Assembly: GCA_039545315.1 (NCBI GenBank)
Contig: BCIM01000009.1
Location: forward strand, 1-64,000
Length of the DNA: 64,000 bases
Source: Kondoa malvinella
Taxonomy: Eukaryota; Basidiomycota; Agaricostilbomycetes; Agaricostilbales; Kondoaceae
Direction of reading: 5' to 3'
Shown: one piece after another, positions 32,275 to 33,395 of the stretch
How the letters are laid out: each line of letters opens with the position of its first letter
Numbering within the stretch: the stretch's first letter is position 1
Program-made: the position numbers and the translations under genes
The notes under the pieces: model-generated
What the model was told of the DNA's origin: nothing
Database searches by the model: none
What the model saw: the letters and a program-made list of their open reading frames with translations, nothing else

Positions 32275-32279
32275 AAAAA
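32275..32279 (-). terminator. Pol III T-run terminator
   Basis: Five T on the minus strand, 18 nt after the tRNA-Gly 3' end, the usual RNA polymerase III stop signal. Confidence 0.6.
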
Positions 32280-32297: not shown

Positions 32298-32420
32298 TAC
32301 GTTTGGAGGGACTCGAACCCTGACCGGAAATTGTCAGTTTTTCGGTTTTGAGATGTTGTGTTGTAGCTTACCCCTTCTACTGCTTGGAAGGCAGTAATAA
32401 TACCCATATACGACAAACGT
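32298..32420 (-). tRNA. tRNA-Gly (anticodon UCC) with a 52-nt GT-AG intron in the T-arm
   Basis: Read on the minus strand, the 5' exon (32372-32420) gives acceptor ACGTTTG, a D-arm with GGG, and an anticodon arm ACTGC-CTTCCAA-GCAGT (anticodon TCC at 32386-32388), closely matching eukaryotic tRNA-Gly(UCC). The 3' exon (32298-32319) holds the B box GGTTCGAGTCC, the 3' acceptor CAAACGT (seven perfect pairs with the 5' side) and discriminator A. Between them lie 52 nt (32320-32371) beginning GTAAGC, with CTGAC about 14 nt from a TCAG end. Removing them gives a T-stem GGGGG/CCCTC (one G-U pair), variable loop AGAA and a 71-nt tRNA. Without removal no T-stem of five pairs forms. A TTTTT Pol III terminator lies at 32275-32279, 18 nt downstream. 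Confidence 0.82.
32320..32371 (-). other. mRNA-type intron inside tRNA-Gly
   Basis: A 52-nt insert with a GTAAGC 5' end, CTGAC branch-like motif and TCAG 3' end, the same size and signals as protein-gene introns in this window. It interrupts the 5' strand of the T-stem (about position 51/52 of the tRNA), not the canonical 37/38 site used by the tRNA-splicing endonuclease. CTGAC also pairs with GTCAG near the 3' end. Confidence 0.7.
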
Positions 32421-32734
32421 GCATCACGTGACCGCAGGTCGTTGTTGAATGACTGGCACAAACAAACTATATATTTTCATTTTTCCGAAAGCGTAGAATT
32501 TACGAAAAGTTGGTTCGCAAAAGGCGACGCTCTGCCAAACTAATCAAACGCCTGCATGATGGCTGGCACTACGCAGCAGTGCGCATGGTCGGATATATCT
32601 GGGGAGCAAGACAGCAGCAGAATTGGAGAAGAAGAAAAGCAGCAGGCGAGATTTGAGGAAAAGGTAGATGGAAACACCATGTCAATTTGCGCCAGGAGAG
32701 CGCGGTGATTGGGCCGGGGCGGGATGTTAGTCTT

Positions 32735-33009
32735 GTACCGAAGTTTCTCGCTATATGCTTGAAGCGATGCCAATCGAGAATATCGTTCATCGTTCATNCA
32801 ACGTTTATGTACCGAAGCTTCTCGCTATATGCTTGAAGCGATGCCAATCGAGAATATCGTTCATCGTTCATCGCTCGCTATATGCTTGAAGCGATGCCAA
32901 TCGAGAATATCGTTCATCGTTCAAACTCCTGCGTTATCAGGGCCAGGCTTGTTCCGAAGCTTCTAGCTGTATGTACGAAGCGATGCCAATCGAGAACATC
33001 GTCAACCGC
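32735..33009. repeat. Imperfect tandem repeat, about 50-70 bp unit, three to four copies
   Basis: Copies begin at about 32735, 32809, 32874 and 32951. The shared core runs from CTCGCTATATGCTTGAAGCG through ATGCCAATCGAGAATATCG and ends in TTCATCGTTCA. The first three are nearly identical and the fourth is diverged. One unresolved base (N) lies between copies 1 and 2 at 32798, so copy number may be wrong in the assembly. Units contain the palindromic CCGAAGCTTC. No protein-coding sense is seen, and the units lack the spacer regularity of a CRISPR array. The remaining sequence between the tRNA and ALG12 (32421-33395) shows no supported gene. Confidence 0.75.
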
Positions 33010-33395
33010 GAAGCTTCGGCAATAGCACGTCTAGCTTTGCCAGAAACTCATGTATTGTCTCGTCCTGGAAGGACGAGGAGTCACTATTCTAGAGCAGGCA
33101 GCGCATGTCATGTTATTGCAGTGTTCTAATGCCTTGAAGAGACCATCAGTCGCCAACATCATACCCAACATTTGCCTGGCGTCTCTGAGGTGATCATTGA
33201 TTCTGAGGCGAGGTAGCATCGCAGCCCCATAGCACCTGTATAACGCTATCAGAGCAAGAACGTCAAAAGCTAATCGCCGCAAACCTTCGCACAACATCTT
33301 CGGCCTGACCTGAGTGTATTCGAGCCGCAGTATGATCGCCTATCCCATTATCAATATCGAATAGGAGTCTACAGCTTGCAGACTGACCTGGAAGA

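What the first reader, a model, noticed from the sequence alone, without database searches (positions are those of the whole stretch)
32298..32420. tRNA-Gly(UCC) split by a GT-AG intron in the T-arm
Seen in sequence: a clean tRNA-Gly(UCC) 5' half and 3' half with a perfect 7-bp acceptor stem, an intact B box and a Pol III T-run. They are separated by 52 nt with GTAAGC, a CTGAC branch-like motif and TCAG. Removing exactly these 52 nt creates a five-pair T-stem. Established: eukaryotic nuclear tRNA introns normally sit at 37/38 and are cut by the tRNA endonuclease, not the spliceosome. mRNA-type introns in a Pol III RNA are known for U6 snRNA of S. pombe and Rhodotorula, thought to come from reverse splicing. 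Inference: this is a spliceosomal-type intron that entered a tRNA gene, or a non-canonical endonuclease substrate. I am not aware of a described equivalent.
Basis: partly seen in the sequence, partly recalled or inferred. Interest (0 to 1): 0.9.

Follow-up and report, generated by a model that had tools for sequence, protein, structure and literature searches.

The report
Messenger-type introns inside many tRNA genes
A fungus-like genome carries short introns of the kind normally cut from messenger RNA inside many of its transfer-RNA genes, including apparently sole copies of essential ones, which suggests that its protein synthesis depends on the spliceosome in a way I have not found described.

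Summary
On the minus strand (32420..32298) lies a tRNA-Gly(UCC) gene (Rfam tRNA, 37.5 bits) split by 52 nt. Removing GTAAGC...CTGAC...TCAG restores a 70-nt cloverleaf (71 with the discriminator). It is not a one-off: in the same 19.1-Mb assembly I found 13 more tRNA genes with GT-AG insertions of 47-55 nt at non-canonical positions, 15 introns in 14 of 42 catalogued genes, at 9 positions from 13/14 to 53/54. Eleven of 12 genes parsed by script also carry an ordinary 37/38 intron, the window gene excepted. In the 12 introns chosen by structure score with only GT and AG required, +5 is G in 12 of 12 and a CTNAY branch-like motif stands 7-21 nt from the end in 11 of 12 (shuffle mean 2.1); with three hand-set introns, 15 of 15 and 14 of 15. 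For 11 spliced tRNAs searched against the genome, no uninterrupted copy was found. A bulge-helix-bulge fits only 1 of 15. Best explanation: spliceosomal introns in Pol III tRNA genes, removed by the spliceosome alongside tRNA-endonuclease splicing. Splicing is inferred; there are no RNA data. In the papers I saw, spliceosomal introns are described in U6, U3 and rRNA, not tRNA.

The parts
32372..32420 (-). tRNA-Gly(UCC) 5' exon, positions 1-51 (acceptor 5' strand, D arm, anticodon arm, 4-nt variable loop, 3 nt of T stem)
32386..32388 (-). anticodon TCC (UCC)
32320..32371 (-). 52-nt GT-AG intron at tRNA position 51/52
32366..32371 (-). 5' splice site GTAAGC
   Evidence: sequence
32333..32337 (-). 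branch-like motif CTGAC, with 14 nt between its A and the end of the intron
32320..32323 (-). 3' splice site TCAG
32298..32319 (-). tRNA 3' exon, positions 52-72 plus discriminator A73
32309..32319 (-). B box GGTTCGAGTCC
   Evidence: sequence; consensus recalled
32402..32413 (-). degenerate A-box region TCGTATATGGGT
   Evidence: sequence; consensus recalled
32275..32279 (-). T5 run, probable Pol III terminator
   Evidence: pattern match ends here

Best explanation
The 52 nt are a spliceosomal (U2-type, GT-AG) intron in a working nuclear tRNA-Gly(UCC) gene, one of at least 15 such introns in 14 tRNA genes of this genome. Shown: the insertions, their positions, their splice-like signals, and that no uninterrupted copy was found for 11 of the 14. 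Inferred: the genes are transcribed by Pol III; U1, U2 and U6 recognise GTNNG...CTNAY...AG and the spliceosome removes the insert; the tRNA endonuclease and ligase separately remove the 37/38 intron where there is one; then the cloverleaf folds and matures.
For: Removal of one GT-AG segment gives a full cloverleaf with a sensible anticodon in Gly(UCC), Gly(CCC), Leu(UAA), Leu(CAA), Ile(UAU), Trp(CCA), Asn(GUU), Asp(GUC), Pro(CGG), Cys(GCA), Met(CAU) and Arg(UCU), removal of two segments does so in Pro(UGG), and Thr(CGU) fits less cleanly. Background: of 1871 TTCRA sites scanned in the loci then held, a spliced score of 19 or more was reached by 11, each in one of these genes. Of 280 boundary types tried on 13 genes, GT-AG has the best mean score (25.1, next 22.3), is at the optimum in 7 of 13 and within 0.5 of it in 9 of 13; no other type is within 0.5 in more than 3. 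Signals that the scan did not use: in the 12 introns chosen by the script, +5 G in 12 of 12, CTRAC in 7 of 12 (shuffle mean 0.4) and CTNAY in 11 of 12 (mean 2.1), neither motif count reached in 2000 shuffles; with the three hand-set introns 15 of 15, 9 of 15 and 14 of 15. Lengths 47-55 nt fall in the cluster of nine motif-selected coding introns of 45-59 nt in the window. A 980-nt composite of 11 spliced tRNAs matches only the 11 interrupted genes and one Cys 3'-half remnant. Asn(GUU) has an uninterrupted paralogue, L001.
Against: No RNA evidence. The genes were first recognised by eye and then scanned with GT and AG required, so GT-AG itself is partly selected. The two Pro(UGG) introns and the Thr(CGU) intron were set by hand: the script chose another pair in each case, Thr(CGU) scores 20.7 without any removal, the hand-set cut leaves an 11-nt anticodon loop, and a non-GT-AG cut scores 27.1. 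For other genes too the GT-AG cut is not the best-scoring one: Gly(CCC) 23.9 against 25.9, with the GG of the D loop lost and a second GT-AG pair tied; Leu(CAA) 23.1 against 24.1; Met(CAU) 24.3 against 25.8; Trp(CCA) 25.3 against 25.7; Gly(UCC) 25.45 against 25.85. Asp(GUC) has no CTNAY, and its intron holds an N. Trp(CCA) was parsed by the script with a 16-nt variable region; my hand reading leaves one mismatch in the anticodon stem. U6, another Pol III gene, has no intron. The Gly(UCC) A box is weak, and introns at 13/14 and 15/16 interrupt the A box in four genes. No relatives could be compared.
Confidence: 0.87

Rival explanations
1. Non-canonical tRNA introns removed by the tRNA splicing endonuclease, as in archaea, nucleomorphs and Cyanidioschyzon.
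For: Introns at D-arm, anticodon-arm and T-arm positions are known in those groups (PMC4090602 passages). Introns at 37/38 are frequent in this genome, so endonuclease-type splicing should exist.
Against: A bulge-helix-bulge fits 1 of 15 introns (Gly(CCC)), with 0.23 expected by chance. +5 G and branch-like motifs are not expected of endonuclease substrates.
Confidence: 0.05
2. tRNA pseudogenes or fragments carrying insertions.
For: Short insertions in D and T arms of eukaryotic tRNA genes are usually taken as pseudogenes (PMC4090602 passage). The Gly(UCC) A box is weak, ARAGORN misses the gene, and a Cys 3'-half remnant lies beside the Cys gene.
Against: Helices are largely intact after removal; no uninterrupted copy found for 11 of 11 searched, including Trp, Cys, Asp and a Met; insert lengths are uniform and splice-like signals regular.
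Confidence: 0.04
3. Parts of ordinary Pol II genes or non-coding transcripts whose introns happen to lie inside tRNA-like sequence.
For: The introns look like mRNA introns.
Against: Removal restores the cloverleaf in gene after gene; B boxes and T runs follow.
Confidence: 0.03
4. Artefact of the assembly, or contamination by another organism.
For: The assembly is unnamed; an N lies near the window gene and one inside the Asp(GUC) intron.
Against: The 14 genes lie on nine contigs (C1, C2, C3, C7, C8, C9, C12, C15, C17); five of these (C1, C2, C3, C9, C12) also carry listed tRNA genes without such inserts.
Confidence: 0.01

Closest known systems
mRNA-type introns of fungal U6 snRNA
   Same: Spliceosomal GT-AG introns inside a small structured Pol III RNA, in fungi; reverse splicing proposed as origin (recalled; U6 introns are cited in PMC5832005, passages and reference titles seen)
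   Different: A different RNA class; here many genes and nine positions, while U6 of this genome is intronless
Introns of fungal U3 snoRNA (PMC5832005, passages seen)
   Same: Ordinary spliceosomal introns in a structured non-coding RNA; copies with and without intron in one genome
   Different: Clustered in the 5' stem-loop of one RNA; that paper states that U3 and U6 were so far the only small structured RNAs known to be often interrupted by an intron
Spliceosomal introns in fungal nuclear rRNA genes (one reference title seen in PMC11782384; otherwise recalled)
   Same: mRNA-type introns in non-coding RNA genes
   Different: Pol I rRNA, not tRNA
Non-canonical tRNA introns of Thermoproteales, nucleomorphs and Cyanidioschyzon merolae (PMC4090602, passages seen)
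   Same: Several introns per tRNA gene at D-arm, anticodon-arm and T-arm positions
   Different: Bulge-helix-bulge substrates in archaea, or short inserts (3-24 nt in Guillardia) whose splicing is unexplained; GT-AG and branch signals are not mentioned in the passages seen

Membership tests
U2-type spliceosomal intron | GT at 5' end and AG at 3' end | tested here: met
   15 of 15, but required in the choice; GT-AG ranks first of 280 boundary types on 13 genes
U2-type spliceosomal intron | Extended 5' splice site (G at +5) | tested here: met
   12 of 12 script-chosen, 15 of 15 with the hand-set ones
U2-type spliceosomal intron | Branch motif at proper distance from the 3' end | tested here: met
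   CTNAY 7-21 nt from the end in 11 of 12 script-chosen, 14 of 15 in all; none in Asp(GUC)
U2-type spliceosomal intron | Excision by the spliceosome, lariat | not testable with these tools
   no RNA data
Functional nuclear tRNA gene | Complete cloverleaf after intron removal | tested here: met
   12 genes scored 23.1-27.1; Pro(UGG) 23.3; Thr(CGU) only with an enlarged anticodon loop; Trp with one mismatch by hand
Functional nuclear tRNA gene | Internal A and B boxes, T-run terminator | tested here: inconclusive
   B box and T run present; A box weak in Gly(UCC) and interrupted at 13/14 or 15/16 in four genes
Functional nuclear tRNA gene | No intact redundant copy (needed if essential) | tested here: met
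   11 of 11 searched; Asn, Pro(UGG) and Thr(CGU) not searched; Asn has an intact copy
Canonical 37/38 tRNA intron | Position one nucleotide 3' of the anticodon | tested here: not met
   positions 13/14, 15/16, 25/26, 27/28, 32/33, 45/46, 48/49, 51/52, 53/54 (derived by hand)
Bulge-helix-bulge (archaeal-type) tRNA intron | 3-nt bulge, 4-bp helix, 3-nt bulge at the junctions | tested here: not met
   1 of 15 fit; motif geometry recalled
Introner element | Many near-identical intron copies in the genome | tested here: inconclusive
   Gly(UCC) intron plus flanks matches only itself; the other introns were not searched genome-wide; among the 15, only short shared stretches

The most novel reading that the evidence does not exclude
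In this lineage spliceosomal introns have invaded the nuclear tRNA gene set and spread within it, perhaps by reverse splicing into tRNA followed by reverse transcription. The only copies of essential tRNAs then need two unrelated splicing systems, spliceosome and tRNA endonuclease, and translation is directly tied to spliceosome activity. Shared intron 3' ends (CTGACAATTTC in Gly(UCC) and Leu(UAA), CTCACAATTTC in Trp), recurrent insertion sites (15/16 three times; 25/26, 32/33, 51/52 and 53/54 twice each), and an Asn paralogue lacking both kinds of intron would be traces of that traffic.
Probability: 0.35. Interest if true: 0.97.

Novelty: new variant of a known kind. Interest (0 to 1): 0.93.

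Why it matters
tRNA splicing and mRNA splicing are treated as separate systems, and eukaryotic tRNA genes as limited to one intron (PMC8450103 passage). Here up to three introns of apparently two kinds sit in one tRNA gene, and interrupted genes include apparently single-copy essential ones. If real, it adds another class of small structured RNA to spliceosome substrates, shows that Pol III transcripts can rely on the spliceosome broadly, explains why tRNA finders may miss tRNAs in such genomes, and gives a tractable record of intron gain in RNAs without a reading frame.

Tried and rejected
I read the organism as a fungus from gene content and intron style; that is inference. PDB sequence searches were uninformative. 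Pattern TGGTN{9,18}YTTCCA did not separate from its reversed control (1027 against 970). 5S rRNA and fungal SRP families gave no hit (47 of 754 and 27 of 124 candidates scored), so introns there could not be judged; the SRP control rang nowhere. The Rfam tRNA search of the assembly scored only 63 of 531 candidates, so the catalogue is a lower bound; initiator Met, His, Tyr, Val(AAC/UAC), Glu(UUC), Lys(UUU) and others are not in it. Of the pattern places (41, 53, 29 and 52, overlapping) I fetched only part: 30 loci and 31 regions, two of them extensions of others; the rest are genes already listed or were judged by eye not tRNA-like. C12:51025 (-) is a Cys 3'-half remnant, not a gene. L069, L092 and L115 end like tRNAs but have palindromic repeats upstream and gave no tRNA; dropped. 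Pro(UGG) was left out of the boundary test, and Pro(UGG) and Arg(UCU) of that. Asn, Pro(UGG) and Thr(CGU) were left out of the composite search. The coding introns were required to match GT, G at +5 and CTRAY, so their likeness in signals is by construction and only their lengths are informative; 8 of the 17 are longer (74-126 nt) and some may be false.

Full report
What was checked. The window is base 1-64000 of contig C9 of an unnamed assembly of 19,088,850 bases in 20 contigs. At its gathering threshold Rfam finds one RNA in it, a tRNA at 32420..32298 on the minus strand, 37.5 bits over the whole model with one large insertion. By DNA search the gene occurs once in the assembly. Taken alone it is suggestive rather than conclusive: 4 of 5 T-stem pairs form without any removal, the junction has three equivalent boundaries, and another cut scores slightly better.

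From one gene to many. I catalogued tRNA genes of the assembly with Rfam (30 hits, 63 of 531 candidates scored) and with B-box plus terminator patterns. Of the 30 Rfam hits, 28 can be read with no insertion except at 37/38; the other two are the window gene and Thr(CGU) on C17. Reading the fetched B-box places by eye and then by script gave 12 further genes that become cloverleaves when GT-AG segments are removed: Leu(UAA), Leu(CAA), Gly(CCC), Ile(UAU), Trp(CCA), Asn(GUU), Asp(GUC), Pro(CGG), Pro(UGG), Cys(GCA), Met(CAU) and Arg(UCU). In total 15 introns of 47-55 nt in 14 of 42 catalogued genes. Twelve of the 15 were chosen by the script by structure score; the two of Pro(UGG) and the one of Thr(CGU) were set by hand. 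Pro(UGG) then has two GT-AG introns plus 5 nt at 37/38. The catalogue is incomplete and its sampling is not random, so one third is not a genome-wide rate.

Positions. Counted by hand: 13/14 Cys; 15/16 Ile(UAU), Arg(UCU), Gly(CCC); 25/26 Leu(UAA), Trp; 27/28 and 45/46 Pro(UGG); 32/33 Leu(CAA), Thr(CGU); 48/49 Met; 51/52 Gly(UCC), Asn; 53/54 Asp, Pro(CGG). In one search the script also reads a separate 37/38 intron of 7-32 nt in 11 of the 12 genes listed there; Gly(UCC) is the exception.

Is it more than chance? In 1871 TTCRA sites of the loci then held, the best GT-AG-spliced cloverleaf reached 19 in 11 cases, each in one of these genes (for Thr(CGU) with another GT-AG pair than the hand-set one, and that gene scores 20.7 unspliced; three of the 14 were not yet whole or fetched). 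On 13 genes (Pro(UGG) left out) 280 boundary types were tried: GT-AG had the best mean score (25.1, next 22.3), reached 23 in 13 of 13 (next 8 of 13), was at the optimum in 7 of 13 and lay within 0.5 of it in 9 of 13 (no other type above 3). The genes had been recognised with GT-AG in mind, so the independent signals weigh most. In the 12 script-chosen introns +5 is G in 12 of 12, CTRAC occurs in 7 against a shuffle mean of 0.4, CTNAY in 11 against 2.1, neither reached in 2000 shuffles; leaving out Gly(CCC), where two GT-AG pairs tie, gives 11 of 11, 7 and 10. With the hand-set three the counts are 15 of 15, 9 of 15 and 14 of 15, and +6 is T in 10 of 15. Exceptions are stated under evidence against.

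Same size as introns of protein genes. A search of the window for introns that join long open frames gave 17 candidates, selected by motif; nine are 45-59 nt, eight are 74-126 nt. The tRNA introns, 47-55 nt, fall in the shorter cluster. The signals of these 17 were required, so their likeness is not a test.

Do the genes matter? A composite of 11 spliced tRNAs found 19 matches: 18 pieces of the 11 interrupted genes and one Cys 3'-half remnant; no uninterrupted copy. Among the 11 are Trp, Cys, Asp and a Met that I read as elongator, each read by a single nuclear tRNA species (recalled). A diverged second gene or an assembly gap is not excluded. Asn(GUU) is the exception: L001 lacks both the GT-AG and the 37/38 intron that L096 carries, as a gene copied from mature tRNA would; this is inference.

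Mechanism. Most likely Pol III transcription, spliceosomal removal of the GT-AG intron, endonuclease and ligase removal of the 37/38 intron, then end maturation. Splicing, its order and its enzymes are inferred. The endonuclease alternative is disfavoured: a bulge-helix-bulge fits 1 of 15 (0.23 expected), and the introns are not unusually structured (mean z -0.7; one Pro(UGG) intron at -4.4). Introns at 13/14 and 15/16 interrupt the A box in four genes, so promoter use there is open. U6 of this genome is intronless, so not every Pol III gene is affected.

Origin. Local similarity between introns is short: CTGACAATTTC shared by Gly(UCC) and Leu(UAA), a 19-nt 3' end with 16 matches between Trp and Gly(UCC), and TCGTGWTACCGT between Ile and Arg, which also share the insertion site. 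That hints at spread within the tRNA set, but a shared 3'-end habit of this genome's introns could give part of it. The Gly(UCC) intron has no genomic copy, which speaks against a young introner family for that one; the other introns were not searched genome-wide.

Literature. Ten searches of the open library were used (one search failed). Judged by titles and abstract starts, none listed a paper on spliceosomal introns in tRNA genes; one search listed 15 of 255. Passages seen: PMC4090602, PMC4033280, PMC8450103, PMC11782384, PMC5832005. PMC4090602 calls non-canonical introns supposedly rare in eukaryotic genomes and its main text does not contain the word stem spliceosom; PMC8450103 says eukaryotic tRNA genes are limited to one intron; PMC5832005 says that U3 and U6 are so far the only small structured RNAs known to be often interrupted. 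Subscription journals and preprints were not searched, so prior description remains possible.

Verdict. I file the introns as spliceosomal-type by their sequence features and rate the system a new variant of a known kind (spliceosomal introns in structured RNA genes), at the far edge of it. On recheck I separated script-chosen from hand-set introns and withdrew the claim that coding introns confirm the signals; the odds did not need to change.

Noticed in passing
window 32734-33013; L110 (C1:3627120-3627360): A repeat of about 64 nt (core CGATGCCAATCGAGAATATCGTTCATCGTTCAT), four copies just beside tRNA-Gly(UCC); by eye a reverse-oriented relative lies just upstream of tRNA-Pro(UGG) (sequence printed). 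Possibly an element that targets tRNA flanks.
   Followed up: partly
L069 (C2:55886), L092 (C9:522668), L115 (C2:1747480): Places with a good T arm and B box but, instead of a tRNA 5' half, palindromic repeats upstream; L069 and L092 look near-identical by eye.
   Followed up: partly
C12:51025-51067 (-), L117: A tRNA-Cys 3'-half remnant in inverted arrangement beside the interrupted Cys gene.
   Followed up: partly
whole assembly: tRNA genes are often followed by TTTTGC: B-box...TTTTGC patterns gave 41 and 53 places against 19 and 11 for the reversed control.
   Followed up: no
whole assembly: No 5S rRNA found with Rfam RF00001 (47 of 754 candidates scored), perhaps because rDNA is missing from the assembly.
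   Followed up: no
C5:938830/940953, C13:119662/135899, C2:2276644/2287409, C2:2568367/2573232, C5:932028/958717: Several tRNA genes come as like-scoring pairs on opposite strands, about 2-27 kb apart; most pairs read identically.
   Followed up: no
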